DNA of 64,000 nt, from the NCBI GenBank assembly GCA_026988355.1, contig JALSLK010000071.1, positions 1-64,000 of the forward strand. The letters are read 5' to 3'. Position 1 is the stretch's first letter. Every line of letters begins with the position of its first letter. The notes beneath the pieces are model-generated. The model did no database searches and was not told where the DNA came from. It saw nothing but the letters and a program-made list of their open reading frames with translations. The position numbers and the translations under genes are program-made. The stretch is from Flavobacteriaceae bacterium (lineage in GTDB: Bacteria; Bacteroidota; Bacteroidia; Flavobacteriales; Flavobacteriaceae). Of this stretch, positions 2,464 to 29,997 are shown in pieces.

Positions 2464-3642
2464 TTAATCCATCCTGTTAATATAAGTCTCCATATCTTTA
2501 TCTCCTCTTCCTGAAAGATTTACAACGATATTTTCGTCTGGTTTACACGTTATTTTTTTTAGTACTGCTAATGCATGTGCCGACTCTAATGCTGGAATGA
2601 TACCTTCTAGTAGCGTTAATTCAAACGCTGCATCTAAGGCTTCTTTGTCTGTTGCTCCAATAAATTTACCTCTTCCTGTTTTAAATAAATGTGCATGTAA
2701 TGGTCCAACTCCTGGATAATCTAATCCTGCTGAAATGGAATATGGTTCGGTTATTTGCCCTTCGCTGTTTTGCATCAATAGGGTTTTACTTCCGTGAATT
2801 ATACCTTCGCTACCAACTTGTGTGGTTGCTGCGGTTTTACCTGTTGCTACACCTAAACCATCTGCTTCTACTGCTATTAATTCTACTTTTGTATTGTCTA
2901 AATAATGGTAAAATGCTCCTGCTGCATTGCTTCCTCCTCCAACACATGCGATAATTTTATCTGGATAATCTCGCCCTGTTTTTTCTTGTAATTGACTTAA
3001 CATTTCTTTACTTATTATCGATTGAAATCGCGCTACCATATCTGGGTATGGATGTGGTCCTACAACAGAACCAATCAAATAATAGGTATCTACTGGATTT
3101 GCAATCCAATCTCTAATCGCCTCATTTGTTGCATCTTTTAGCGTTTTACTTCCAGAAATGGCTGGTCTTACTTCTGCTCCTAACATTTTCATTCGTGCCA
3201 CATTTGGCGCTTGTCGTTTTATATCTACTTCGCCCATATATACAATGCATTCTAAACCCATTAATGCACATACTGTTGCTGTTGCTACTCCATGTTGTCC
3301 TGCGCCAGTTTCGGCAATAATTCGCTGTTTCCCCATCTGTTTCGCTACTAAAATCTGACCTATTGTATTGTTTATTTTATGTGCTCCTGTATGGTTTAGA
3401 TCTTCTCGTTTTAAAAATATATTGGTGTTGTATTTTTTAGATAAGCGTTTTGCATAATACAAAGGTGTTGGTCTTCCAACGTATTCTTTTAACAAATCTT
3501 TAAATTCTTTTTTAAATACTTTGGAGTTAATTATTTGTAAATAATTCTCTTTTAATTCATTGGTGTTATGGTATAACATTTCTGGGATAAATGCTCCTCC
3601 AAATTCGCCATAAAATCCTTGTTCGTTACCCTTGTAATTCAT
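2464..3642 (-). CDS. trpB: Tryptophan synthase beta chain
   Basis: TrpB is a PLP enzyme that condenses indole with serine to give tryptophan. The 392-residue product has the expected length. The cofactor lysine is Lys89 in HTGAHKINN, followed by the catalytic-glutamate segment [19 protein letters not shown] is the PLP phosphate loop. The N-terminal [11 protein letters not shown] motif is typical of TrpB1, so this is the complex-forming form, consistent with the adjacent trpA. Its start overlaps the trpF end by 17 bp, which indicates translational coupling. Confidence 0.98.
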
Positions 3643-4237
3643 TATAAAATGTTTTTATGTTTTTTATATTTTTTAGTGCTGGTTCTATTTCGAATCCGCT
3701 ATTTATATCTATTCCTATAAATTTTAGATGTTTTATTTTTCTTATTTCGGACGCCATTGTTGCGTCAATTCCGCCACTAAGTAAAAAAGGTATTTTTCCT
3801 TTATAATTTTGTAATAATTTCCAATCGAATACAACTCCATTTCCTCCTGCTTTTTTACCAAATGCATCAAATAAAAAAAGTTCGCAAGTAGGTTCGTATT
3901 TTTTTAATCGTTCAAAATCAAAACCTTCTTTTATATTAAATGCCTTTATTACTTTTAGATTTTTATTTTTAATTTTACGACAAAACTGTGGGGCTTCTTT
4001 TCCGTGTAATTGGATATAATCTAATTTAAAATTTTTTGTTTTTTGCAATATAAAATCTATCGTTTTATCTACAAATACGCCTACTTTTTTTATCGTTTTT
4101 GGTATTTCCACTTCTGGTTTTACGAGTACATTACGGCTTGATTCTTCATGAAATATAAATCCAATAAAATCTGGTTGAACTTGTATTAGTTCAACTATGT
4201 TGGTTTTGTTTCTCATGCCACAAACTTTTAATTTCAT
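3626..4237 (-). CDS. trpF: Phosphoribosylanthranilate isomerase
   Basis: TrpF catalyses the Amadori rearrangement of phosphoribosylanthranilate to CdRP. The 203-residue single-domain TIM barrel has the N-terminal KVCGMRN motif with catalytic Cys6. The [16 protein letters not shown] segment carries the general-acid aspartate region, and [13 protein letters not shown] binds phosphate. It is a separate protein here rather than fused to TrpC as in E. coli. It overlaps trpC by 4 bp (ATGA) and trpB by 17 bp. Confidence 0.95.
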
Positions 4238-5022
4238 TGTTTTTTTATTTTTCTAATAAACTCCATACACGCTTGTTCTGGCGATGTTGTTTTCATAAAA
4301 TTTTCGCCTATTAAAAAACCTTCAAATCCGTATTTTTTTAGTTCTATAATATTTTTATAATCGCTTATACCACTCTCTGCTATTTTTATTGTTTCTTTTG
4401 GCAATTGTTTACTGAGTTTAATGGAGTTTTCAAAATCCACTTCAAAAGTTTTTAAATTTCTGTTATTTATTCCTACTAAATTTATTTCTGGAATGTATTT
4501 TTCTAGTTCTTTTTCTGTGTGTACTTCTAATAAAACTTCTAATCTTAATTGATGTGCTAAATTGGTATATTGTTTAATTTCTTTTTTGCTTAATACTGCT
4601 GCTATTAATAATATTACATCTGCTCCTATTGCTTTTGCTTCCAATATTTGATATTCCGAAATGATAAAATCTTTTCTTAATATTGGACATGTATTTATTT
4701 TTCTAGCATTTAAAATATCTTCATTTCGTCCTCCAAAAAAATGGGTATCTGTTAATATAGATAATCCTGAAACGCCTGCTTTCTCATACCCTTTTATTAC
4801 ATCTTCTACTTTTGATGTTCCATTAATTAATCCTTTGGATGGTGATTTTCGTTTAAATTCTGCTATTATTCCGCTTTTATCTGTTCTTAATATAAATTCT
4901 TTTAAGGATTTTGTTTCGGATTTAAAATACTTACTTTTCTCCAATTCTTTTACGGAAAATATTGCTTTATTTTTTAGAACTTCTTTTCGTTTATATGCTA
5001 TTATTTTATCTAAAATTGTCAT
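4234..5022 (-). CDS. trpC: Indole-3-glycerol phosphate synthase
   Basis: TrpC closes the indole ring, converting CdRP to indole-3-glycerol phosphate. The 262-residue product is a stand-alone TIM barrel of normal length. Diagnostic segments are EFKRKSPSKG (catalytic lysine and substrate loop), CPILRKDFIISEYQ, GINNRNLKTF and AESGI (phosphate binding). It lies 23 bp after trpD and overlaps trpF by 4 bp, in the usual Bacteroidetes order. Confidence 0.96.
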   Translation of the reverse strand: MTILDKIIAYKRKEVLKNKAIFSVKELEKSKYFKSETKSLKEFILRTDKSGIIAEFKRKSPSKGLINGTSKVEDVIKGYEKAGVSGLSILTDTHFFGGRNEDILNARKINTCPILRKDFIISEYQILEAKAIGADVILLIAAVLSKKEIKQYTNLAHQLRLEVLLEVHTEKELEKYIPEINLVGINNRNLKTFEVDFENSIKLSKQLPKETIKIAESGISDYKNIIELKKYGFEGFLIGENFMKTTSPEQACMEFIRKIKKQ

Positions 5023-6035: not shown

Positions 6036-6608
6036 TTATATTTCTAAAAAATTACGAATCATTTTTTTTCCGTGTTCGGTTAATATCGATTCTGGATGAT
6101 ATTGTACGCCATACAGTTGGTAATCTTTGTGTTTTAAAGACATTATTTGTCCATTTTTTTCTTTGGATGTTATCTTTAGTTCTTTTGGAAAATTTTCGAT
6201 TGCTACAACCCAACTGTGGTATCTTCCGACATTAAATTCTCTAGGTAAATCTTTGTATAATAGGTCTTCTTTTTCTATTACCTGAATTGGTGTTGCTACA
6301 CCATGAAATACTTTTTCTAGATTTTTTAATGTTCCGCCATAAACTTCTCCTATGGCTTGCATTCCTAGGCAAACTCCTAGTATTTTTTTTGTTGCCGCAT
6401 ATTTTTTAATGACTTCTTTTAATATTCCTGCATCTTTTGGTAATCCTGGTCCTGGCGATAAAATTATTGTATCGTATTTTGTTACTTCTTCTATGCTTAT
6501 TGCATCGTTTCTATATACTTCTACAATTGCGTCGGATTCTTCTTTTATATAATGTACCAAATTGTAGGTAAATGAATCGTAATTATCTAATACTAGTATT
6601 TTTTCCAT
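6036..6608 (-). CDS. trpG: Anthranilate synthase glutamine amidotransferase subunit
   Basis: TrpG releases ammonia from glutamine for TrpE. It is a class I amidotransferase of 190 residues with LDNYDSFTYN at the N-terminus, the oxyanion segment SPGPG, nucleophile Cys80 in LGVCLGMQA, and the His/Glu pair of the triad in QYHPESIL near the C-terminus. In some bacteria the same subunit also serves PabB; no pabB is visible here. It is 3 bp after trpE and almost certainly co-translated. Confidence 0.96.
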   Translation of the reverse strand: MEKILVLDNYDSFTYNLVHYIKEESDAIVEVYRNDAISIEEVTKYDTIILSPGPGLPKDAGILKEVIKKYAATKKILGVCLGMQAIGEVYGGTLKNLEKVFHGVATPIQVIEKEDLLYKDLPREFNVGRYHSWVVAIENFPKELKITSKEKNGQIMSLKHKDYQLYGVQYHPESILTEHGKKMIRNFLEI

Positions 6609-6611
6609 AAC

Positions 6612-8006
6612 TTATATTGTTTCTGCTAATTTTAATGCTTTTTTTAATGCGCCTAACTTGTTATTGACTTCTTGCAATTCATTTTCTTCATTAGAACTTA
6701 CTACTACTCCTGCTCCTGCTTGAAAGAATAAGGTATTGTTTTTACTTAAAAAACTACGGATTGTTATTGCGTGATTTATAGATCCATCAAATCCAAATAC
6801 ACCAATTGCTCCTCCATAAAACCCTCTATGTTGGTTTTCGTATTCGTTAATTAATTGCATGGCTCTATATTTTGGTGCTCCTGATAATGTTCCTGCTGGA
6901 AAGGTATCTGCAAAAATTTGTAGGGAATCGGAGTTGGATTCTAAATCTGCTTCTACTTCAGATACTAAGTGAATTACATGACTGTAAAATTGTGTTTCTT
7001 TATAGGTTTTGACCGTTACATTTTTTCCATGTCTACTCAAATCATTTCTTGCTAAATCTACAAGCATGGTATGCTCTGCATTTTCTTTTGGATCTTTTGC
7101 TAGTTCTTCTGCTAATTTCTTATCTTCTATATCATTTCCTGTTCTTTTAAATGTTCCTGCTATCGGATTTATAATTGCTTTTGCTTTACTCACTTTTAAT
7201 TGTGCCTCTGGCGATGAACCAAATAGTTTATAATTCCCAAAATCAAAATAAAATAAATATGGTGATGGATTTACCGATCGTAATGCACGATACACATTAA
7301 AATCATCTCCATTAAATTTTTGTAAAAATTGTCTTGACATGACTATTTGAAATACATCTCCTTGCTGACAATGTTCTTTCCCTTTGGTAATTAATTCTTT
7401 AAAATCATTGTCTGAAATATTTGTTGCTATCTCTCCTTGCAACTTAAATTGGTACTGTGGTCGACTATTACTGCTAACTAAATCTGTAATTTTATCTATG
7501 TTTGATACTTCTCCTTCTATCAAATTTTCTAAGATTGTCAACTCGTTTTTAAAATGATCTATTTGTATAATATATCTAAAAAAGGCATAATGCATTTCTG
7601 GTGTATGGTATTTTTTATCTTTGGAAATATTTATATCTAATGTTTCAAAATATTTTACTGCATCGTAATTTGTATACCCAAAAAGTCCATTTACTGCATT
7701 GTTATTTTTTATATCAAAACTACCTAACAAGGTTTGTAATTCTTTAATTACTTGTTTCCTTTTTGTTATTTGTATGGTATTTTCTAAAGTAAGTCCTTTT
7801 ATATTTATTGTTTTGTCTTCTACTATAAATGAGACTAATGGTTCTAAACAAATAAATGAAAAATTATTTTCGGTTGCATGATAGTCGGAACTTTCTAACA
7901 AGAATGAATTGTGAAATTTATCTCGTAATTTTAAATATAAACCTACTGGTGTAACCAAATCGGATAATGTTTTTTTTGTTTTTAGATTAATTTTAATTTT
8001 TTTCAT
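6612..8006 (-). CDS. trpE: Anthranilate synthase component I
   Basis: TrpE makes anthranilate from chorismate with ammonia from TrpG. The C-terminal chorismate-binding domain is intact (GDVFQIVMSRQF, NPSPYLF, PIAGTFKRTG, DLARNDLSRHG, FPAGTLSGAPK). The N-terminal LLESSD segment matches the LLES tryptophan feedback motif, so feedback inhibition is likely. The frame is open 13 codons further to 8045, but those codons run through the attenuator hairpin at 8025-8050. I therefore choose the ATG at 8006, giving 464 residues that begin MKKIKINLKTKK. Expression is probably controlled by the upstream attenuator. Confidence 0.95.
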   Translation of the reverse strand: MKKIKINLKTKKTLSDLVTPVGLYLKLRDKFHNSFLLESSDYHATENNFSFICLEPLVSFIVEDKTINIKGLTLENTIQITKRKQVIKELQTLLGSFDIKNNNAVNGLFGYTNYDAVKYFETLDINISKDKKYHTPEMHYAFFRYIIQIDHFKNELTILENLIEGEVSNIDKITDLVSSNSRPQYQFKLQGEIATNISDNDFKELITKGKEHCQQGDVFQIVMSRQFLQKFNGDDFNVYRALRSVNPSPYLFYFDFGNYKLFGSSPEAQLKVSKAKAIINPIAGTFKRTGNDIEDKKLAEELAKDPKENAEHTMLVDLARNDLSRHGKNVTVKTYKETQFYSHVIHLVSEVEADLESNSDSLQIFADTFPAGTLSGAPKYRAMQLINEYENQHRGFYGGAIGVFGFDGSINHAITIRSFLSKNNTLFFQAGAGVVVSSNEENELQEVNNKLGALKKALKLAETI

Positions 8007-8020
8007 TGTGTTTATTGCAT

Positions 8021-8102
8021 AAAAAAGGCTTGTCGTAATCGACAAGCCTTTATAGAGTATTATAATGGATTTTTAGATTACGTTTTTTAAGTAAAACGAA
8101 TC
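8021..8102 (-). promoter_or_regulatory. trp operon attenuator (segments 1-4)
   Basis: Read on the minus strand, four segments make mutually exclusive hairpins. Segment 1 (8093-8102, GATTCGTTTT) overlaps the end of the last Trp codon and the Ile-Arg-Phe codons of trpL. Segment 2 (8076-8086, AAAACGTAATC) is its complement with one bulge. CGTAATC of segment 2 (8076-8082) is perfectly complementary to GATTACG (8034-8040) at the tip of the terminator. The terminator stem is 11 bp (8025-8035 with 8040-8050) with a 4-nt loop and a run of U (8021-8026). A ribosome stalled at the Trp codons would cover segment 1, free segment 2 to pair with the tip of the terminator, and allow read-through into trpE. 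Confidence 0.85.
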
Positions 8103-8137
8103 CACCACCAGTTTGTATTTTTTGTTGTATTTATCAT
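8087..8137 (-). CDS. trpL: trp operon leader peptide with three consecutive Trp codons
   Basis: The ATG at 8135-8137 opens a 16-codon frame reading MINTTKNTNWWWIRFT and ending with TAA at 8087-8089. The codons TGG TGG TGG occupy 8102-8110. Three Trp codons in a peptide this short, 81 nt ahead of trpE and followed at once by a terminator with a matching antiterminator segment, identify a transcription-attenuation leader. Tryptophan shortage would stall the ribosome on these codons. The predicted transcription start is only a few bases upstream, so the message may be nearly leaderless. Confidence 0.85.
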   Translation of the reverse strand: MINTTKNTNWWWIRFT

Positions 8138-8179
8138 TTGTTTAAACAAATATATATAAAATTAATTAATTAATTCCAA
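8137..8179 (-). promoter_or_regulatory. Predicted trp operon promoter with overlapping palindrome
   Basis: On the minus strand TATATTTG (8147-8154) matches the Bacteroidetes -7 element TAnnTTTG, with a TTG at 8177-8179 as a possible -33 element at a slightly long spacing. The 14-bp perfect palindrome TTTGTTTAAACAAA spans 8137-8150, from inside the -7 element to the trpL start codon, and could be an operator. The promoter reaches into the end of the thioredoxin gene. Confidence 0.5.
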
Positions 8180-8469
8180 TTTTTTTCAATAATTGTTTTT
8201 AATTGTAATGCTGGTACAACTCCAGATTGTCTCCAGACTTGCTTTCCTTTTTTAAATAAAATTAAGGTTGGCACTCCTCTTACTTGGTATGCTGCCGATA
8301 CTGATGGGTTTTTATCTACATCTATTTTTATGATTTTAATTTTATCTTTTAACATGGACTTTATTTCCTTTAGAATTGGTAACATTGCTTTACATGGTCC
8401 ACACCACACTGCTGAAAAATCGACCAATACGGGTACTTCTTGATTTATTATTTCTTTAAATGAAGCCAT
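8170..8469 (-). CDS. Thioredoxin
   Basis: This is a cytoplasmic dithiol-disulfide oxidoreductase of 99 residues, close to the usual length. The active site is WCGPCK with Cys23 and Cys26, and the cis-proline loop is [13 protein letters not shown]. There is no signal peptide. It lies directly upstream of the trp leader in the same orientation, but trp has its own promoter, so co-regulation is unlikely. Its neighbour upstream is the metal chaperone of the sulfide cluster, and a role in low-molecular-weight persulfide reduction is possible but not shown. Confidence 0.93.
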
Positions 8470-8641
8470 TTTTATAATTATTTAAAATACGACGACTTAA
8501 GGAGGACAAATAAAAGGCAATTTTTTTGAATAATTTTTAATAAATAACAGGTTATTCCTTAAAATTTATTCTTCAAATCTCACCATTTCTTCATTTTCTG
8601 TAAATAGAAATCTTAGTCGAACTTTATTTTATATGCATTAA

Positions 8642-8911
8642 TTAATCGTTACTCATTTTACCTGTTGCACAACTTACAAATGATTTTGCTTTGTGCATCA
8701 CTGTATTGGCATCTCCAACTTCTGGATATCCCATTTTAGATAATTTTTCTTTTACTTCCATAAAAATTTCTTCTGATACCTCATTTATTTTTATTTCTGA
8801 TTTTTCTAAAGTTACTTCTACTTCATTTATACCTTCAAGAGAAAGTAATCCTTTTTTAATAGTATTTGCACATCCATTACATTTTAAATTTAATATATTT
8901 ATTGTAGTCAT
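8642..8911 (-). CDS. Heavy-metal-associated (CopZ-like) chaperone
   Basis: This 89-residue protein has an HMA ferredoxin-like fold, with the metal motif LKCNGCANTIKKGL (Cys11 and Cys14) close to the N-terminus and the fold closing near residue 68. It probably binds copper(I) and passes it on, or buffers it. A C-terminal tail of about 20 residues adds a further cysteine (SFVSCATGK), which is not typical of CopZ. It lies 70 bp after the 43-residue protein that follows the first SQR gene and may belong to that transcript; copper handling and sulfide chemistry are linked because sulfide precipitates copper. Confidence 0.85.
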   Translation of the reverse strand: MTTINILNLKCNGCANTIKKGLLSLEGINEVEVTLEKSEIKINEVSEEIFMEVKEKLSKMGYPEVGDANTVMHKAKSFVSCATGKMSND

Positions 8912-8981
8912 TTTTTTTATTTTTAGTTACTGTTTTTTTTGTTGTAAAACTTCTTTTGAGTTTACTACTGGTCAAATATAA

Positions 8982-9113
8982 TTAATTTCTTGTTCCGCCA
9001 TGTCCTTTTGCAACCACAAAAAGTATTTTTGTATTAAGGTATAGAAATCTAAAAAATTGCACTATCCAATTTTTCATCATAAATCGTTGTGTTTTTGTTA
9101 TTTTCTGAGCCAT
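8982..9113 (-). CDS. 43-residue basic small protein downstream of SQR
   Basis: A short frame starts at ATG 9113 (MAQKITKTQRF) and contains a hydrophobic stretch (WIVQFFRFLYLNTKILFVV) and a basic, glycine-rich end (AKGHGGTRN). The frame is open upstream to 9212, but that part overlaps the end of the SQR gene, so I take the internal ATG 20 bp after the SQR stop. It looks like a membrane-associated peptide that may anchor or assist the neighbouring SQR, a monotopic membrane enzyme. I know of no established function. Confidence 0.55.
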   Translation of the reverse strand: MAQKITKTQRFMMKNWIVQFFRFLYLNTKILFVVAKGHGGTRN

Positions 9114-9133
9114 ATTAAATGTTTTTACTTTAT

Positions 9134-10588
9134 TTATTCTGGTATTAACCACCAAAATGGTTTCATTTTTGCTTTGTATATAAACATATAGTGCAATGCT
9201 AATTTCACCCAATGTCCGGCCAATCCCATATCGCCAATTGTATCGTTTAGGTTTCTACCTGTTTCTGGATATTTTTGATAATCTGGTACAATTGGATTTA
9301 CGGTCATGGTAACTGCGGAACCTTTTCCTAATCCAAATCCAGAAGATGCAACACAAGCTGCTCCCATATTACCCATAGAACCTTTGTGTAATTTGGCATT
9401 CTCTCCATTTTTTATCAATTCGATTACGTTATCTACTACTACTTTTGCAGATATTCCAGATGGCATTCCTGTTCTTGGTGGTGCTGGAAATATAGCTGTT
9501 CCATTTTTACTTGTTCTCGGTTTAGATATGGTATGAGGTGGTGCAAATGCAATTCCTGGTGCAAAAATATTTTTGTACGAAGGGTTTTGATAGGTTTCCG
9601 GCCAATCTTGTACTGTCCACTCTTTGTATGGTTTTTTTGTATAATCTGCATCTACAATCATAAACCCTTTAAATAATTTTTCAGTAATATCTCCACCGTT
9701 TTTATCGTACGCTTTAAATCCATGTCCAGAAAATGCAGGAATTAACATTCCGAAATCAAATTTTTCTGTTTTGTATTCTCCTTCTAAAGTTTCGTAATGT
9801 ACAACACCATCTTCTATTTTATATACACCTGCTCTTTTAATCCATCTAATTCCTCTATCTTCAAAAAGCATTTCTGCTAAATCTTGCCCTGTCATTTTTT
9901 TACCACCAACTTTGAGTGTCATTCCATCCATTCCAAAATCTCCCAACTCATATTCGTTCGAAATCCATGTAATTTCTGCTTTATCTCTAACTTTATATCG
10001 GTTTAGTTCATGTTCTACATTTAATATATATTCAAATGCAGCTCCTTGGCAGGTTGCTTTGGCATGTCCTGTACCAATTAATATTTTTACATGTTCTCCA
10101 TTTTTCATTCTCGTTATTAACGCTTCAAGATCTTTCCAAGCATGTTGTGCATGGTCATAGGTACAAACGGAAACGGTTTTATTTGTTCCTGGCATTAAAC
10201 CTTCGGTAGCTCCAAAATTAAGTTTAGGACCTGTAGCATTTATTAAATAATCATAATCTATTTTAATCGTTTGACCTTTTTTACCTCCTAATACATATTC
10301 TGCTAAAACATAGCCTTTATTTATTTCATTATCTCCTTCTGGATAAAAAGCTGTACCCTTTGCTTGTATGTATGTAATTCCTTTTTTCTTATATAAAGGT
10401 GCTAATGGAAACACCGTTTGTTTTGCTTTCATTCGACCAACTCCTATCCATATATTTGATGGAATCCATTGGTAATTACTATTTGGTGACACTACAACTA
10501 TTTCGTGTTTGTTGGATAATTCTTTTTTAAGATAGGATACTGCAGTATGTCCTGAAACTCCTGCTCCTAATACTACTATTTTTGCCAT
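9134..10588 (-). CDS. sqr: Sulfide:quinone oxidoreductase-like flavoprotein (first copy)
   Basis: SQR oxidises sulfide to zero-valent sulfur at the membrane and passes electrons to quinone. The 484-residue product opens with the FAD-binding VLGAGVSG (residues 6-13). Three cysteines, Cys142 (VCTYDHA), Cys180 (ATCQGAAFEY) and Cys412 (GAACVASSG), are arranged like the redox cysteines of SQRs. NATGPKLNFG and FAPGIAFAPP are further flavin-binding regions. The aromatic C-terminus (KAMKPFWWLIPE-like end) fits membrane contact. It is distinct from the second, type II SQR at 41126. A GTAAC-N4-GTTAC palindrome lies 54 bp upstream of the ATG. Confidence 0.82.
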   Translation of the reverse strand: MAKIVVLGAGVSGHTAVSYLKKELSNKHEIVVVSPNSNYQWIPSNIWIGVGRMKAKQTVFPLAPLYKKKGITYIQAKGTAFYPEGDNEINKGYVLAEYVLGGKKGQTIKIDYDYLINATGPKLNFGATEGLMPGTNKTVSVCTYDHAQHAWKDLEALITRMKNGEHVKILIGTGHAKATCQGAAFEYILNVEHELNRYKVRDKAEITWISNEYELGDFGMDGMTLKVGGKKMTGQDLAEMLFEDRGIRWIKRAGVYKIEDGVVHYETLEGEYKTEKFDFGMLIPAFSGHGFKAYDKNGGDITEKLFKGFMIVDADYTKKPYKEWTVQDWPETYQNPSYKNIFAPGIAFAPPHTISKPRTSKNGTAIFPAPPRTGMPSGISAKVVVDNVIELIKNGENAKLHKGSMGNMGAACVASSGFGLGKGSAVTMTVNPIVPDYQKYPETGRNLNDTIGDMGLAGHWVKLALHYMFIYKAKMKPFWWLIPE

Positions 10589-10611
10589 CTGATGTTTCGT
10601 TTTATGTAATA

Positions 10612-10619
10612 CAAATTTA
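10612..10619 (-). promoter_or_regulatory. -7 element of the first SQR promoter
   Basis: TAAATTTG on the minus strand matches TAnnTTTG. Its centre is 33 bp downstream of the centre of the palindrome at 10642-10655. No TTTG -33 element is visible at the usual place, as expected for an activator-dependent promoter. Confidence 0.6.
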
Positions 10620-10641
10620 CATGGTATTTATATCGTTTGGA

Positions 10642-10655
10642 GTAACTTAAGTTAC
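10642..10655. promoter_or_regulatory. Operator GTAAC-TTAA-GTTAC (sulfide regulon site 1)
   Basis: This is a perfect 14-bp palindrome, extending to 16 bp at 10641-10656. It is centred 33 bp upstream of the centre of the -7 element and about 60 bp upstream of the SQR start. The same motif with the same spacing occurs before the rhodanese, CstB-like and SulP genes. The shape (two 5-bp half-sites, 4-bp spacer) is that of a Crp/Fnr-family site. Confidence 0.7.
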
Positions 10656-10820
10656 TTATAATTGAGTTCTGCCTAAAATTCAATTTACAGAAATTACATC
10701 TAGTTGAAATTTGAAGAACAAAATTATATTTGTTTATAAAAAAATCCATTCTAACTATAAACGAATTTTAGGTTGAAATCTGGTTTATAATGTTGTTCTT
10801 ATTATCCTTATTTATTCCAT

Positions 10821-10857
10821 AAAAAAATCCTTAAAATAAATATTTTAAGGATTTTTT
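10821..10857 (-). terminator. Intrinsic terminator after the heme lipoprotein gene
   Basis: A 17-bp AT-rich stem (10822-10838 with 10841-10857) has a 2-nt loop and an A/T run on each side. It lies 20 bp past the stop of the minus-strand gene at 10877 and before the first SQR promoter, so it separates the two transcripts. Confidence 0.8.
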
Positions 10858-10876
10858 ATTTTGTAGTATACTCCTA

Positions 10877-11446
10877 TTATTCGTTAAATGTAACAGCTAA
10901 AACTCCTCTTAAATTTCCTACTTTAAATCCTGTTGCTTTGTCATTAGGATACAATACTTTTAGTATACTATCTGTTTTGGAAGTAATTTGCTCTCCAACT
11001 ACTCCATGACACATTAAACATTTACCTTCTGCTATAATTGGCGCATAAAAATGCACTTTATTGTCCTTTTCTTTTTTAACTATTGGCTTTAATTTTTCTC
11101 CTTTAGTTACCAATGATAAATAGTGTTTAATAATAGCCTCCTCTTCTTGGTTTGGTTTGTTTTTTTTACTCCTAATTTTATGTGATGTTCTTTTTATAGA
11201 AACCTTATATTTATCTGCTATTTCTGTTGTTAATATATCTGCTTTCACATTACAAAAAGGTATTGCTTCTTTCGTACCTCCTGTTTTTATATGATACATC
11301 AAATTACTTCCTAATTTTTTTAGGGTTGCTTTTCCAATTTCTTTTCCTTTAACAATATATACTTGTTTTTCTTTTTCGGAAAATTTATCTGAATCACAAC
11401 TTGTTATTAATGCTACAATAAAACTCAATAGAAATAGATGCTTCAT
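10877..11446 (-). CDS. Tll0287-like (DUF3365) heme lipoprotein
   Basis: The 189-residue product has a lipobox (LITSC, Cys17) and one heme c motif, CLMCH at residues 143-147. Upstream segments such as AIPFCNVKA and VSIKRTSHKIRSKKNKPN resemble the Tll0287-like domain, a PAS-like heme-binding fold. It should be an outer-facing or periplasmic lipoprotein cytochrome that senses or carries electrons; no catalytic role is known. It lies 1 bp after the rhodanese lipoprotein gene, so the two form one operon under the palindrome at 11961-11974. Confidence 0.82.
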   Translation of the reverse strand: MKHLFLLSFIVALITSCDSDKFSEKEKQVYIVKGKEIGKATLKKLGSNLMYHIKTGGTKEAIPFCNVKADILTTEIADKYKVSIKRTSHKIRSKKNKPNQEEEAIIKHYLSLVTKGEKLKPIVKKEKDNKVHFYAPIIAEGKCLMCHGVVGEQITSKTDSILKVLYPNDKATGFKVGNLRGVLAVTFNE

Positions 11447-11447
11447 G

Positions 11448-11906
11448 TTATTTTACTGCTTTAAAACCTTTAGCAGACCATCCCATAAATCCGCCATCTA
11501 GGTTTACTACATTATATCCTTCTGCTTTTAATTTCTTTGCAGCTTTCATACTTCTTCCTCCTGATCGACAATATACATATACAGGAGTATCTTTTTTATA
11601 TTTTGCCATTTGCTCCATAAAATTTTTATCAAATACATTTACATTTTCTGCATTTTCAATATGTCCTTCATTAAACTCGTTTGGTGTTCTTACATCTACC
11701 AATTGTACCTCTTTTCCTTCTGTTTCTGTCTTAAATTCTGTTGCATTTACTCGTTTTATTGGATTCTTCTTTTGTACTGGTTTTACAGTAGTTTCTGCTA
11801 CTGAATTTGTTTCTGTAGTTTTTACTGTATTTTTTGCGCAACTAGTTGTTGTTACTATTGCTACTAATAACACTATTAAAATATTTAGATTTTTAATTTT
11901 CATCAT
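11448..11906 (-). CDS. Rhodanese-like lipoprotein
   Basis: The 152-residue protein has a lipobox at TTSC (Cys23), a Thr/Lys-rich linker, and one rhodanese domain (about residues 52-150) with active-site Cys113 in YVYCRSGGRS. Rhodanese domains carry sulfur as a persulfide, and here the enzyme would sit in the periplasm, tethered to a membrane. It is the first gene of a two-gene operon with the heme lipoprotein. A near-palindrome, GTAAT-ATTT-GTTAC, lies 55 bp upstream, placing it in the predicted sulfide regulon. Confidence 0.88.
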   Translation of the reverse strand: MMKIKNLNILIVLLVAIVTTTSCAKNTVKTTETNSVAETTVKPVQKKNPIKRVNATEFKTETEGKEVQLVDVRTPNEFNEGHIENAENVNVFDKNFMEQMAKYKKDTPVYVYCRSGGRSMKAAKKLKAEGYNVVNLDGGFMGWSAKGFKAVK

Positions 11907-24902: not shown

Positions 24903-25292
24903 TTATTTTGATGAGGTATTTATTATTTCTATAATGGTAAGCAATCTATTATTTTCTTTTAACAATCTTTCTTTATCTATTTCTAACTGTTTAATGATTT
25001 TTTCAATATACTCTTTATTATCCTGATACAGATTTTCTACAATACCTACACTATAAGTATGATCTGCATTATTGTTAAAATTATTTATAGTTGTATTACC
25101 CTCTAATAAATCAATCATATCTATTTTTAAAATATCTGCAATTTTCGCTAACCTATCAGTATTTAATTTAGTCTCTCCATTTTCTAAATTTGCATAAGCT
25201 GGCTGAGAAATTTCTAACTGACTAGCCATATACTCTTGAGAGTATTGCATTTCATTTCTTCTTCTTTTAATTTTAAATCCTAAATCATTCAT
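24903..25292 (-). CDS. XRE-type transcription regulator with coiled-coil tail
   Basis: The 129-residue protein has an N-terminal helix-turn-helix (about residues 5-60, YSQEYMASQLEISQPAYANLE) and, after an Asn-rich linker, a C-terminal amphipathic helix (about 80-125) suited to dimerisation. It is divergent from the secreted-protein/lipoprotein/Lnt-like cluster that begins at 25460 and is the obvious candidate regulator. Its -7 element TATATTTG lies at 25313-25320. Confidence 0.9.
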   Translation of the reverse strand: MNDLGFKIKRRRNEMQYSQEYMASQLEISQPAYANLENGETKLNTDRLAKIADILKIDMIDLLEGNTTINNFNNNADHTYSVGIVENLYQDNKEYIEKIIKQLEIDKERLLKENNRLLTIIEIINTSSK

Positions 25293-25312
25293 TTTAATTA
25301 TATTTTTATAAG

Positions 25313-25320
25313 CAAATATA
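25313..25320 (-). promoter_or_regulatory. -7 element of the XRE regulator gene
   Basis: TATATTTG on the minus strand, 20 bp before the ATG at 25292. Confidence 0.5.
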
Positions 25321-25459
25321 ATAATTTATATCTTAAATATAAGTACACACTCATTAACTCTAACTATTTTTGACCAAAATAAATTGCTATAAATCTCCTC
25401 CATAAAATAAAATAGTGATTTACTTAAAAAAAGTAAATATTCATAAAAAAATCAAACTA

Positions 25460-26107
25460 ATGAAATTAACAAAATTTATATCCATTGTACTATTATTTTT
25501 ATTTCTTTTCACTTTAAAATTTACACTTTCTAGTTCAAATAAATGGGACGAACCTGAAACTCCAATTCCAACTGATTGTGATCGTGTAAACCATGACGAA
25601 GATGAAACGACAAATATTCACATAAACTTTAGAAATGAGGGCGGACATATAAATATTCCGTATAGAAATTCTGGTTACGACACATATATACCAACTAAAG
25701 ATCTCAGAAACGGTTACCCAAATCCTGAAACAAGTTTAGCTAATAATAACGATAGCTATTATTGTATTATAGAAGTAACTACACCAGATTGTAGCAATTG
25801 GGATTGGTCTACGAGAATACCAAATGGAGGTAGTGGTAATGTAGAAATACATTTACCACGTGGCGAAAATATTTGGGATGTACGACTTGTAATAAAATAC
25901 TATGAAAAATGTTCTAACGGAACATATTCAACTAATTATTCTACTTTACAATACGGCTATGAATCTTCTAATATTACCGGTTTTTTATATGGAAATCCTA
26001 CTACTTTTATTGAATTAATTCCGACACAAGAAAATAATTGTTACAGCTTTTTTGTTTATGATGATGAAGAAATAAGCCAATCTTTAGATAATATATATCC
26101 TTGGTAA
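25460..26107 (+). CDS. Uncharacterised secreted protein (cluster gene 1)
   Basis: I do not recognise this 215-residue protein. From the ATG at 25460 (the frame is open to 25415) it has an N-terminal signal or anchor segment (KFISIVLLFLFLFTLKFTLSS) and then an acidic, Asn- and Tyr-rich mature part. Five cysteines (TDCDR, SYYCI, TPDCS, YEKCS, ENNCYS) may form disulfides. Alternating patterns such as VEIHLPRGENIWDVRLVIKYY suggest a beta sandwich. It is the first of four tightly packed genes. Confidence 0.6.
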   Translation: MKLTKFISIVLLFLFLFTLKFTLSSSNKWDEPETPIPTDCDRVNHDEDETTNIHINFRNEGGHINIPYRNSGYDTYIPTKDLRNGYPNPETSLANNNDSYYCIIEVTTPDCSNWDWSTRIPNGGSGNVEIHLPRGENIWDVRLVIKYYEKCSNGTYSTNYSTLQYGYESSNITGFLYGNPTTFIELIPTQENNCYSFFVYDDEEISQSLDNIYPW

Positions 26108-26136
26108 AAAATAAACTTTTTAAAAAAAATAAAAAA

Positions 26137-26901
26137 ATGAAATCATTATATAAACAAATCATACTAATATTAACCATAGTAATATTAGCATCTTGCAACA
26201 ACGAAACTATAGACTTACAAGATGAAAAGGAAAATAAAGCTTTATCTATTCAAGAATATTTTAAAGTGTTAAAAATTAAACCAAAAGGTGGAAGAATTCT
26301 TTTAGAAAGTACTGCCTCTATCGATTTTAAAAACGATTCTAGAATAAGCTCTATTTCCTGTACTCAAATTCGAATAAAAAAATCATTTACTTTAGGCCAT
26401 AAAAAAACAAAAGTAGTTAATCAATTTAAAAATGGTTTTTCAAAAAATACGTCTAATTTATTTGGACAAACATTTGAATATAATATTGAAGGAACCGTTT
26501 TTCAAAAAAATGGTAATAATAATGAAGTTTATATTCCTGAATTACTAGATATTGATATCGACACTCCAACATTACAAGTAGGAACAGTAATAACTTGGAA
26601 TGTGGATATATTAAATACGAATGGATTGATATTATGGTATGAATACACTCCTATAATTCAAGATAAGATTGAGGTTTTAAACGATAATAAAAAACGTATT
26701 ACATCTGGAATTACCATTCCAGATGTAAATGGTTCATATACAATAACTGCTAATGATATTGTAAATTTACCTAATAATGCAAGAATTACTTTTCATGTTA
26801 CAAGAGCTGGATTTGACATTTCTAATAATACATCTGATGGTAATCAAATTGCATTTATTGGCATCACATCTGCGTCTAAAGAACTACGTATTAATAAATA
26901 A
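26137..26901 (+). CDS. Uncharacterised lipoprotein (cluster gene 2)
   Basis: The product has 254 residues from the ATG at 26137; the frame is open to a TTG at 26101, but that adds a basic tail before the signal. The lipobox is LASC with Cys20. The rest is Asn/Ile/Thr-rich and probably beta-structured, with no motif I know. Its stop overlaps the ATG of the Lnt-like gene by one base. A lipoprotein encoded next to an N-acyltransferase-like enzyme suggests that it could be that enzyme's substrate. Confidence 0.65.
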   Translation: MKSLYKQIILILTIVILASCNNETIDLQDEKENKALSIQEYFKVLKIKPKGGRILLESTASIDFKNDSRISSISCTQIRIKKSFTLGHKKTKVVNQFKNGFSKNTSNLFGQTFEYNIEGTVFQKNGNNNEVYIPELLDIDIDTPTLQVGTVITWNVDILNTNGLILWYEYTPIIQDKIEVLNDNKKRITSGITIPDVNGSYTITANDIVNLPNNARITFHVTRAGFDISNNTSDGNQIAFIGITSASKELRINK

Positions 26902-28253
26902 TGCTTAACTCACAAATTACATATTCAAAAAACCACCTTAACAAGTGGTTTTTTTTTATAAAATATCCATTATTTTTATTCATATCATTTTTATCTTGGA
27001 ATTTTTTTGGTCTATTATTTGTCCTAAATATTTATATTCTATTTAATTTTTTAGAAAAATCAAATAGAAAACCAACTCATTTTATTTCTTATTTTTTAGA
27101 AAGCTACTTTTTTATGCTTTTATGGCATTTGGGTGCAACTGGCTGGCTAATTACTATAGATAGTGGTGTATTTGCTATATTAGCTAATTCTATTATATTT
27201 TCAGTTCCTTTTGCAATTGTATTTATAAGTAAAAAAATACCTAAACAGATTTTGTTGATTTTTATTTGGGTACTATTTGAAATTTTAATCAATTCATTTT
27301 CTTTTTCTACTCCATTACTTACAATTGGCAATGCTCTTTCAAATCAAATCTATATTATTCAATGGTATAAATATACAAGTGTAATAGGCGGAAGTGTCTG
27401 GTTATTATTAATTACATATTTTATTTTTAATCGAAAAAAAAGTATCACTCTAATTCTTTTAGTCCTTCCTTCCTTTATTTCTATTGTCATTTTTTATAAA
27501 AGCAAAAATAACAACCTTCAATTAAAAAAACAGTTGACAGCTACAATCTTTAATCCTCAATATCATAAAGCCAATTCATCCTCAGATTTGAGTTTATATG
27601 TACAAAATAAATTGCAATATAAAACAGATTTACTTATTATGCCTGAATCTATAATACAATTTAATTCGATTAACTACACAAATACATTGACATATAAAAT
27701 ATTTCAAAAAATAATTTTAAAAAATAATTTACAAAATATATTCTTTGGCGTGGACATTAAATATAAAAAGAACAAAAGATTAAATGCAGCATTGTTTTTA
27801 TCAAAAAATCATTCATTATTAAAAGTAAAGAAAAAATTAGTGCCTTATAGTGAATATTTACCAAAAATATTTTCGTTTCTTAATTCTAAACCTTCTTATA
27901 TTTTTAATGTAAAAGATGATTCAAATAAAATAATATTAAATTATCATATTACACCTGTAATTTGCTATGAAGCCTTTTTTCCTTTTTATATTTCTAAAAA
28001 TTCTACTAATTCAAAATTAATTCTATTAATTGCCAGCGAACGATTTTTAAATGGTTCTTATTATGGTAAAAAACAATATAATAATATCTTAAAAATAAGG
28101 GCAATTGAAAATAACTTACCAATTATTAAATGTTCAAGTTATGGAAATTCTATGTTAATAAATGAAAAAGGTATAATTGTTGACGCATCAGATAATAAAG
28201 AATTTTACAATTTTAAAATACCAAATTATTTAATTAAAACCGACAAATTATGA
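26901..28253 (+). CDS. Short apolipoprotein N-acyltransferase-like membrane enzyme (cluster gene 3)
   Basis: The 450-residue protein has about six to seven N-terminal membrane segments (residues 15-200) and a C-terminal nitrilase domain with the Glu-Lys-Cys triad of Lnt: Glu249 (MPESI), Lys310 (KVKKKLVPYSEY) and Cys355 (VICYEAFFP). Lnt adds the third acyl chain to lipoproteins. At 450 residues it is shorter than the usual 500-540, and it lies in an accessory cluster rather than a housekeeping one, so it may be a specialised paralogue; whether another lnt exists in this genome cannot be seen here. An intrinsic-terminator sequence lies inside its first 20 codons. Confidence 0.78.
   Translation: MLNSQITYSKNHLNKWFFFIKYPLFLFISFLSWNFFGLLFVLNIYILFNFLEKSNRKPTHFISYFLESYFFMLLWHLGATGWLITIDSGVFAILANSIIFSVPFAIVFISKKIPKQILLIFIWVLFEILINSFSFSTPLLTIGNALSNQIYIIQWYKYTSVIGGSVWLLLITYFIFNRKKSITLILLVLPSFISIVIFYKSKNNNLQLKKQLTATIFNPQYHKANSSSDLSLYVQNKLQYKTDLLIMPESIIQFNSINYTNTLTYKIFQKIILKNNLQNIFFGVDIKYKKNKRLNAALFLSKNHSLLKVKKKLVPYSEYLPKIFSFLNSKPSYIFNVKDDSNKIILNYHITPVICYEAFFPFYISKNSTNSKLILLIASERFLNGSYYGKKQYNNILKIRAIENNLPIIKCSSYGNSMLINEKGIIVDASDNKEFYNFKIPNYLIKTDKL
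26927..26957 (+). terminator. Intrinsic-terminator-like hairpin inside the start of the Lnt-like gene
   Basis: A stem of AAAAAACCAC (26927-26936) with GTGGTTTTTT (26945-26954), an 8-nt loop and a run of nine T downstream makes a credible terminator 26 bp after the lipoprotein stop. It is read as codons 9-19 of the next gene. It could reduce expression of the two downstream genes relative to the first two. Confidence 0.6.
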
Positions 28254-29092
28254 AAAATTATTTATTCATTTTTACCCTTTTATTTTTTATAAATATAAAT
28301 TTACAAGCACAAAACAACAACACACAAACCGCCTTTTATAATATTGGCTTAGGTGGTGTTATGAGTAGTATTGGCGCTGCAATAAACAAAAAACCAAATG
28401 AAAAATTAGGGAAAGTAATGCTTAAAGGTTTTTTGCAAGGCGCCTTAGGTGGTACAGTAGTATATGGTAGTAAACAAATGGTATATCATTTTAATAAAAA
28501 AAACAAATTGGAGAATCTTTGGATGTCAAAATTAGTAAATTCCGCTGGTATTTCCATAATTGAAAATGCTTCATTAAATAATAATTTTTATGACAAATGG
28601 CATTTAAATATTGGTTTTAATCGGATTGAATTGGATACTAAAAATAAATTAAAATTAAGCTATAAATTGATGCCTACAGCTTTAATAGGAACATTTATAG
28701 CTGCAAACAATAATAAATTTAATTTTAAATATACTGTACAAACATTAACTCCTATTTTTATTTCTAAAAATACAGATAGACCAACCACTTCAGTCAATTC
28801 AATACATTTAAAGCAATCTGATGTGAGACGCAGTATGGCACACGAATTTATTCATACTTTACAATACGATGATTTTATGTCTGTAAATGTATTCTTTAAT
28901 AAACAAAAAATAAAATGGACAAATAAATATTCTTTTGTTCATAGTCAAAGCAAATGGTTATATATTGACCTTCCTGGAGGTATCACTTTAAGAAGTTTTT
29001 ATATCTTGGAGAATAATAATCAAAAGTGCTATTATGATAATTTTTTTGAAAACGAAGCTAACTTTTATTCTAATAAAAAACTATGCCCATAA
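28250..29092 (+). CDS. Secreted HExxH protein, possible zinc protease (cluster gene 4)
   Basis: The 280-residue product has a signal peptide ending near LQAQ (residue 21), a glycine-rich hydrophobic segment (about 33-75) and HEFIH at residues 198-202, with Glu267/Glu269 (FFENEANFYS) as possible third metal ligands. This is the gluzincin pattern HExxH...E, but I do not recognise the family and catalysis is not proven. It overlaps the Lnt-like gene by 4 bp (ATGA), so the two are translationally coupled. Its stop is 2 bp from that of the convergent HAD gene. Confidence 0.65.
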   Translation: MKNYLFIFTLLFFININLQAQNNNTQTAFYNIGLGGVMSSIGAAINKKPNEKLGKVMLKGFLQGALGGTVVYGSKQMVYHFNKKNKLENLWMSKLVNSAGISIIENASLNNNFYDKWHLNIGFNRIELDTKNKLKLSYKLMPTALIGTFIAANNNKFNFKYTVQTLTPIFISKNTDRPTTSVNSIHLKQSDVRRSMAHEFIHTLQYDDFMSVNVFFNKQKIKWTNKYSFVHSQSKWLYIDLPGGITLRSFYILENNNQKCYYDNFFENEANFYSNKKLCP

Positions 29093-29496: not shown

Positions 29497-29997
29497 TTAT
29501 TTTTTATATCCTATTTTGGTTCTTTGTTTTTCTTCTTTTTCTGGATTTTCTAATAGTTTTTGTAATACGTTATAAATCTCAGAAAACTGTTCGTTGTATT
29601 TAGATTCTAATTGCTTCATTTTTATTCTTATTTCTTCATGGTTACTAGATAGCTTTCTAAGTTCTACAAAGGTATCAATTATTTGGATACTCATCTTGAT
29701 TGCTATTTTACTGTTTAAAACACTAGATAACATTAAAATACCATGTTCTGTAAAGACAAAAGGCATATACTTTGTATGTCTTCCTCTCTTTAAGGTTGCA
29801 ATTTGCGATCTTAAAGAATTGTGTTCTTCTTCTGTAAGTTCAAACATAAAATGTTTAGGAAACCGTTCTATATTTCTTCTAACTTGTTCTTTTAATCTTT
29901 TTGTTTCAACACCAAAAAGTTCTGCTTAATCTTTGTCTAACATTACTTTTCGATTTTGTATTACGTATTTCTTATTAAGTATTATCTCGTTTGGCAT
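29497..29997 (-). pseudogene. ORF6N-domain DNA-binding protein with an in-frame stop
   Basis: The frame starts at ATG 29997 and reads normally except for a TAA at codon 24 (29926-29928), where the family has leucine (DLAELYGVETKRL; here D-stop-AELFGVETKRL). A single TTA to TAA change explains it. The rest is intact: VRRNIERFPKHFMFELTEEE, then FVFTEHGILMLSSVLNSKIA, then a coiled coil. ORF6N proteins are phage-related regulators. A 116-residue fragment could start at Met 29847 but would lack the N-terminal half of the domain. Confidence 0.85.

What the first reader, a model, noticed from the sequence alone, without database searches (positions are those of the whole stretch)
24903..29092. Unrecognised cluster: XRE regulator, secreted protein, lipoprotein, short Lnt-like acyltransferase, HExxH protein
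Four genes packed with 1-4 bp overlaps or short gaps encode a Cys-rich secreted protein, a lipoprotein, an Lnt-like enzyme with the Glu-Lys-Cys triad but only 450 residues, and an exported protein with HEFIH and a candidate third ligand. A divergent XRE gene may control them. Inference: a dedicated lipid-modification and processing system for one or two lipoproteins, possibly for a surface structure, signal or competition factor. I know of no described system with this composition.
Basis: partly seen in the sequence, partly recalled or inferred. Interest (0 to 1): 0.72.

Follow-up and report, generated by a model that had tools for sequence, protein, structure and literature searches.

The report
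Mobile cassette with dedicated lipoprotein acyltransferase
A four-gene cassette, found scattered among Flavobacteriales, carries its own specialised version of the enzyme that attaches a fatty acid to lipoproteins, together with a lipoprotein, a small exported protein and a metal-site protein, so these bacteria seem to lipid-tag particular surface proteins separately from their normal lipoprotein pathway.

Summary
The cluster is real, and its four co-directional genes form a conserved cassette. All four families lie together in five genomes of at least four genera (window genome, G198, Aquimarina aggregata, two Chryseobacterium), with lipoprotein plus Lnt at a contig edge in a sixth. Gene order and flanks differ, so it moves as a unit. 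The XRE gene is not part of it.

The short Lnt keeps the Glu-Lys-Cys triad. It forms one clade (100/100 support) on a long branch from 32 housekeeping Lnts of the order. It is the only Lnt in the window genome, but that does not make it housekeeping: that genome encodes an Lnb candidate. In 62 searched genomes full-length Lnt and Lnb never co-occur (38 Lnt, 24 Lnb). The cassette is found in both backgrounds.

Best reading: a horizontally moving, dedicated N-acylation system for its own client(s), the predicted surface lipoprotein and/or the small exported protein. The closest precedent is enterobacterial AatD, a dedicated Lnt homologue that acylates the N-terminal glycine of CexE/Aap. The HExxH protein has an invariant HExxH, two invariant Glu, no Pfam family and no significant PDB fold match; it also occurs alone. 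Its role is unknown, most likely client processing. Client identity is untested.

The parts
25460..26107 (+). Small exported protein: one N-terminal hydrophobic segment, no lipobox, Ser/Gly-rich just after it; conserved 'YYC' motif. (GTG start at 25415 also possible.)
   Evidence: family alignment of 5; hydropathy; no Pfam/NCBIfam/PADLOC/PHROG family
26137..26901 (+). Lipoprotein: lipobox ...VILASC, polar then acidic residues after Cys (CNNETID), C-terminal beta-sandwich domain, FN3/Ig-like (low-confidence model)
   Evidence: model mean pLDDT 59, most of the C-terminal half 69-92 per block; best PDB match an FN3 domain, E 0.014
26901..28253 (+). Cassette Lnt: short apolipoprotein N-acyltransferase family member, triad E249-K312-C355 intact, no C-terminal TM helix
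28250..29092 (+). Exported HExxH protein, family found here only in Flavobacteriales; invariant H198 E199 H202 and E267/E269; no known fold found
24903..25292 (-). Divergent XRE-type HTH regulator: neighbour, not a conserved part of the cassette
   Evidence: PF01381; no counterpart at the other cassettes

Best explanation
A horizontally moving cassette that encodes a dedicated Lnt-family N-acyltransferase with its own client protein(s). Proposed steps: the lipoprotein and the small protein are exported by Sec. The lipoprotein gets diacylglycerol from the host's Lgt and is cut by LspA; the small protein is cut by signal peptidase I. The cassette Lnt then transfers an acyl chain to the free N-terminus of one or both, independently of the host's housekeeping N-acyltransferase (Lnb or full-length Lnt). 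The acylated client(s) are displayed at the cell surface as a pair. The exported HExxH protein is a predicted metal-site protein that most likely processes a client. Shown: co-occurrence, linkage, shared ancestry, intact catalytic residues, separateness from housekeeping lnt, lipobox. Inferred: acyltransferase activity, client identity, surface display, and any role for the HExxH protein.
For: Four families together in five genomes with different gene order and flanks; lipoprotein-Lnt pair in a sixth. The five strong lipoprotein homologues outside the window genome all sit beside a cassette Lnt. Cassette Lnts are one clade, 100/100, against 32 housekeeping Lnts. Gene trees of Lnt, HExxH and the small protein share the split {window, Aquimarina | G198, Chryseobacterium} with support about 1.0; the lipoprotein tree agrees at 0.87. 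Triad, second Glu and CYE motif intact in all six. Purifying selection in the Chryseobacterium pair, dN/dS about 0.1 or less with dS saturated. A full-length Lnt exists elsewhere in A. aggregata (G775) and in G052; Lnb exists in G000 and G198. Precedent: AatD is a dedicated Lnt homologue for CexE/Aap (PMC7478709, PMC7943197).
Against: No activity data. One G000 copy (contig C7) has lipoprotein and HExxH without a visible Lnt, though the contig is only 4.9 kb. HExxH occurs alone in three genomes (G272, G931, G964), so it may not act on the cassette client. Distant lipoprotein relatives occur without Lnt. No export machinery is in the cassette, unlike Aat. Only six cassettes are known.
Confidence: 0.62

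Rival explanations
1. The cassette Lnt acylates the non-Cys N-terminus (Gly or Ser) of the small exported protein, as AatD does for CexE/Aap; the lipoprotein is only a surface partner already handled by the host enzyme.
For: The small protein has a signal peptide but no lipobox and Gly/Ser right after it: SSSGGGKGG (G198), ASSGRTK and ATSGRSK (Chryseobacterium), SSSNK (window), SSKS (Aquimarina). CexE homologues have a Gly/Ser mix there and one Gly sufficed (PMC7943197). Like AatD (about 400 aa) the enzyme is short.
Against: In the window and Aquimarina proteins the N-terminal residue would be Ser or Asn rather than Gly. The cleavage site was not computed. In the sixth cassette only lipoprotein and Lnt are seen (the contig ends there).
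Confidence: 0.3
2. The short Lnt is the housekeeping N-acyltransferase of this species, or a recent replacement for a lost one; the neighbours are accidental.
For: It is the only Lnt found in G000 and in G198.
Against: Both genomes have an Lnb candidate. The five congeners have Lnb and no Lnt at all. The same cassette clade coexists with full-length Lnt in other genomes. The neighbours are conserved.
Confidence: 0.05
3. A competition (toxin-immunity-like) or adhesion locus: the exported protein and lipoprotein are an effector or adhesin pair, the enzyme activates or anchors them, and the HExxH protein protects or processes.
For: Patchy distribution, horizontal spread, orphan and fragmentary HExxH genes, different loci in each genome.
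Against: No match of the four proteins to known toxin, immunity or defence families. The HExxH protein has no immunity-like similarity.
Confidence: 0.2

Closest known systems
AatD of the Aat system (AatPABCD with Aap/CexE), Enterobacterales
   Same: Short Lnt homologue with Glu-Lys-Cys triad, extra to housekeeping Lnt, encoded in a restricted, variable operon and dedicated to a small exported client (PMC7478709, PMC7943197)
   Different: Aat carries an ABC transporter (AatP, AatC), an outer-membrane channel (AatA) and AatB, all absent here. The cassette adds a Cys lipoprotein and an HExxH protein. Direct sequence relation to AatD was not tested.
Apolipoprotein N-acyltransferase Lnt (TIGR00546)
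   Same: Same two-domain architecture (PF20154 + PF00795), triad, second Glu, CYE motif
   Different: About 440-500 aa instead of about 530; below the TIGR00546 cut-off; deep separate clade; 'TND-WW' signature replaced by 'SE-F'; C-terminal TM helix missing in 5 of 6
Lnb (PF13387, formerly DUF4105), the lipoprotein N-acyltransferase of Bacteroides
   Same: Performs N-acylation in Bacteroidota lacking Lnt (cited in PMC13103446 and PMC12994826); present as the presumed housekeeping enzyme of the window genome
   Different: Unrelated superfamily (NlpC/P60, PMC12994826), not in the cassette

Membership tests
Lnt (apolipoprotein N-acyltransferase) superfamily | LNT_N plus CN_hydrolase domains | tested here: met
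   PF20154 35.0 bits (cut-off 27.1), PF00795 43.3 bits (cut-off 23.2)
Lnt (apolipoprotein N-acyltransferase) superfamily | Glu-Lys-Cys catalytic triad | tested here: met
   E249, K312, C355 aligned with housekeeping Lnts, invariant in all six cassette members
Housekeeping Lnt (TIGR00546 equivalog) | Score above the curated cut-off | tested here: not met
   115.5 vs 132.9 bits; cassette members in G052, A. aggregata and G198 score 109.9, 125.2 and 100.8
Housekeeping Lnt (TIGR00546 equivalog) | Groups with the Lnts of related genomes | tested here: not met
   Six cassette Lnts form one clade, 100/100, apart from 32 Flavobacteriales Lnts
AatD-type dedicated N-acyltransferase | Extra to the housekeeping enzyme and linked to a client gene | tested here: met
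   Lnt or Lnb present elsewhere in G000, G198, G775, G052; linkage to candidate clients
AatD-type dedicated N-acyltransferase | Small client with N-terminal Gly after signal peptidase I cleavage | tested here: inconclusive
   Gly plausible in 3 of 5 small proteins, Ser/Asn in 2; cleavage not computed
AatD-type dedicated N-acyltransferase | AatP/A/B/C export components in the operon | tested here: not met
   No transporter or outer-membrane channel gene is conserved beside the cassettes
AatD-type dedicated N-acyltransferase | Sequence clade with AatD | not tested
   AatD sequences of pathogen virulence plasmids were not fetched (referred step)
Surface lipoprotein with lipoprotein export signal (LES) | Lipobox Cys followed by polar and acidic residues | tested here: met
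   CNNETID, CEEES, CSEES, CSNEN, CNNDKD, compared with SDDFE/SDDDD of PMC5080379; surface location itself not testable
Zinc metalloprotease (HExxH) | HExxH with a third metal ligand | tested here: inconclusive
   HExxH and E267/E269 invariant in 9, but no Pfam family above cut-off and no fold match below E 0.001; metal and activity not testable

The most novel reading that the evidence does not exclude
A Bacteroidota lipidation system in which a specialised Lnt N-acylates a non-cysteine N-terminus (Gly/Ser) of a small exported protein, working with a surface lipoprotein and an HExxH enzyme of a new fold. It would be a second, independent origin of glycine/serine-acylated lipoproteins, spread by horizontal transfer.
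Probability: 0.27. Interest if true: 0.8.

Novelty: new variant of a known kind. Interest (0 to 1): 0.6.

Why it matters
Lipoprotein N-acylation is usually treated as one housekeeping step per genome. Here is a mobile cassette bringing its own N-acyltransferase into cells that use Lnt or the unrelated Lnb for the bulk of their lipoproteins. If confirmed, it shows that client-specific acylation is not an oddity of enterobacterial pathogens. It also supplies a natural test of why N-acylation of one protein should be separated from the rest (surface display, a different acyl chain, release). Three of the four families have no known domain, and the HExxH family has no matching solved fold.

Tried and rejected
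Housekeeping-lnt reading: rejected (Lnb present, separate clade). XRE as part of the system: rejected (absent elsewhere). Phage or plasmid origin: no HExxH match in the plasmid or phage collections or viral contigs, no cassette-like Lnt in plasmids or viral contigs. Known defence system: no PADLOC hit for the four proteins. PDB by sequence: only the Lnt has relatives below E 0.001. Fold search of the HExxH model: nothing below E 0.001. Lipoprotein and small protein as paralogues: no (hhalign probability 1.3). Second Lnt-like proteins of G030 and G027: different nitrilase-family proteins; that of G007 is an Lnt paralogue whose triad Lys aligns to Val. A first tree was discarded because reverse-strand loci were read wrongly; one search replaces it.

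Full report
OBSERVATION. With the likely ATG starts the order on the + strand is small exported protein (25460-26107), lipoprotein (26137-26901), Lnt-like enzyme (26901-28253) and HExxH protein (28250-29092), with a 29-bp gap, a 1-bp overlap and a 4-bp overlap. The Lnt-like protein hits PF20154 and PF00795 above their cut-offs, but TIGR00546 (lnt) only at 115.5 bits against a cut-off of 132.9. The exported protein and the HExxH protein have no Pfam family and the lipoprotein none above cut-off.

CO-OCCURRENCE. A search for lipoprotein relatives, followed by inspection of neighbours, found the block elsewhere. Aquimarina aggregata has HExxH - small - lipo - Lnt (L070). Chryseobacterium sp. SSA4.19 (L072) and G820 (L113, taken for a Chryseobacterium from its close similarity to L072) have small - lipo - HExxH - Lnt, preceded by a PLCC-type lipoprotein. 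G198 has small - lipo - Lnt - HExxH. An Ichthyobacteriaceae MAG (G052) has lipo - Lnt at the contig edge. tblastn from the window proteins: Lnt E 1e-43 to 1e-69, HExxH E 1e-49 to 1e-66, lipoprotein E 1e-17 to 1e-23. Flanks differ: dksA/lspA in G198, lipase/tig in Aquimarina, unrelated genes in the two Chryseobacterium, between which homology covers about 8932-13067 of L072. The families are rare. The lipoprotein search had 5 hits in 396 order genomes, of which G000, G198 and G052 are clear. HExxH was found in 3 of 396 order genomes, 4 of 173 genomes of the genus of G272, 3 of 69 of the Aquimarina genus and 2 of 375 of the phylum. HExxH also stands alone in G272, G931 and G964, and as fragments in G796 and G819. 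The window genome has a second, Lnt-less lipo-HExxH pair on a 4.9-kb contig. The XRE gene has no counterpart in any of these.

NOT HOUSEKEEPING. The window genome (94% complete) has no other Lnt; neither do its five congeners nor G198. PF13387 (Lnb), however, is found in exactly those genomes: among 62 genomes searched for both, 38 have full-length Lnt, 24 have Lnb, none both. The displacement of Lnb (DUF4105) by Lnt has been reported (PMC12994826), and Lnb is cited there and in PMC13103446 as the N-acyltransferase of Bacteroides. That the Flavobacteriales Lnb works the same way is inferred. The cassette Lnt is therefore additional in both kinds of genome. In a maximum-likelihood tree the six cassette Lnts are one clade (100/100, all bootstrap trees) on a long branch. 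The triad, E318 and C-Y-E are invariant. The housekeeping 'TND.WW' is 'SE.F' in the clade, and the C-terminal TM helix is absent in five of six.

ONE UNIT. Trees of Lnt, HExxH and the small protein agree on {window, Aquimarina} versus {G198, Chryseobacterium} with support 0.999-1.0. The lipoprotein tree agrees at 0.87. G198 is in the window's family while the Chryseobacterium-type genome G820 is in another, so this split argues for transfer between families. The Chryseobacterium pair shows dN/dS of about 0.1 or less with saturated dS.

PROTEINS. Lipoprotein: lipobox and then polar/acidic residues, resembling the F. johnsoniae and B. fragilis LES (PMC5080379). The AF2 model is confident only in the C-terminal half, with FN3-like matches. 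Small protein: hydrophobic leader, no lipobox, Gly/Ser-rich start. HExxH: model with pLDDT 83 and pTM 0.83, helical with a small beta region, no solved fold below E 0.001. H198, E199, H202, E267 and E269 are invariant.

MECHANISM AND PRECEDENT. AatD is a dedicated Lnt homologue with the same triad that palmitoylates the N-terminal Gly of CexE/Aap (PMC7478709, PMC7943197). By analogy the cassette Lnt acylates the cassette lipoprotein (Cys) and/or the small protein (Gly/Ser). This is inference. It may work like AatD, but membership was not tested by sequence, and one defining feature, the export components, is absent.

Noticed in passing
G000:C122:4009-4455 and 62 genomes: Full-length Lnt and Lnb (PF13387) are mutually exclusive in 62 Flavobacteriales genomes (38 versus 24, none with both), with a split inside the window's own family.
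   Followed up: partly
L087 (G000:C7), 3047-4823: Second, diverged lipoprotein-HExxH pair in the window genome on a 4.9-kb contig beside an IS3-type element, with no Lnt visible.
   Followed up: partly
L088 (G198), 6160-11773: The cassette sits between dksA and lspA, next to the gene for the lipoprotein signal peptidase.
   Followed up: no
L114 7718-7984, L115 6974-7171: Fragments of HExxH genes in two genomes of the genus of G272, suggesting frequent decay.
   Followed up: no
L072 8809-9297, L113 9737-10225: A PLCC-type (PF14466) lipoprotein gene conserved directly upstream of the cassette in both Chryseobacterium.
   Followed up: partly
L090 (G771), 6528-7917: A distant lipoprotein relative with a short exported protein upstream and no Lnt: the pair may be an older unit.
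   Followed up: no
window 29497-29847: Truncated ORF6N-domain gene (only domain positions 44-86) beside the cassette, possibly a mobile-element remnant.
   Followed up: no
hits H6-H11, H14: Small Psychrobacter plasmids carry an annotated lnt gene.
   Followed up: no
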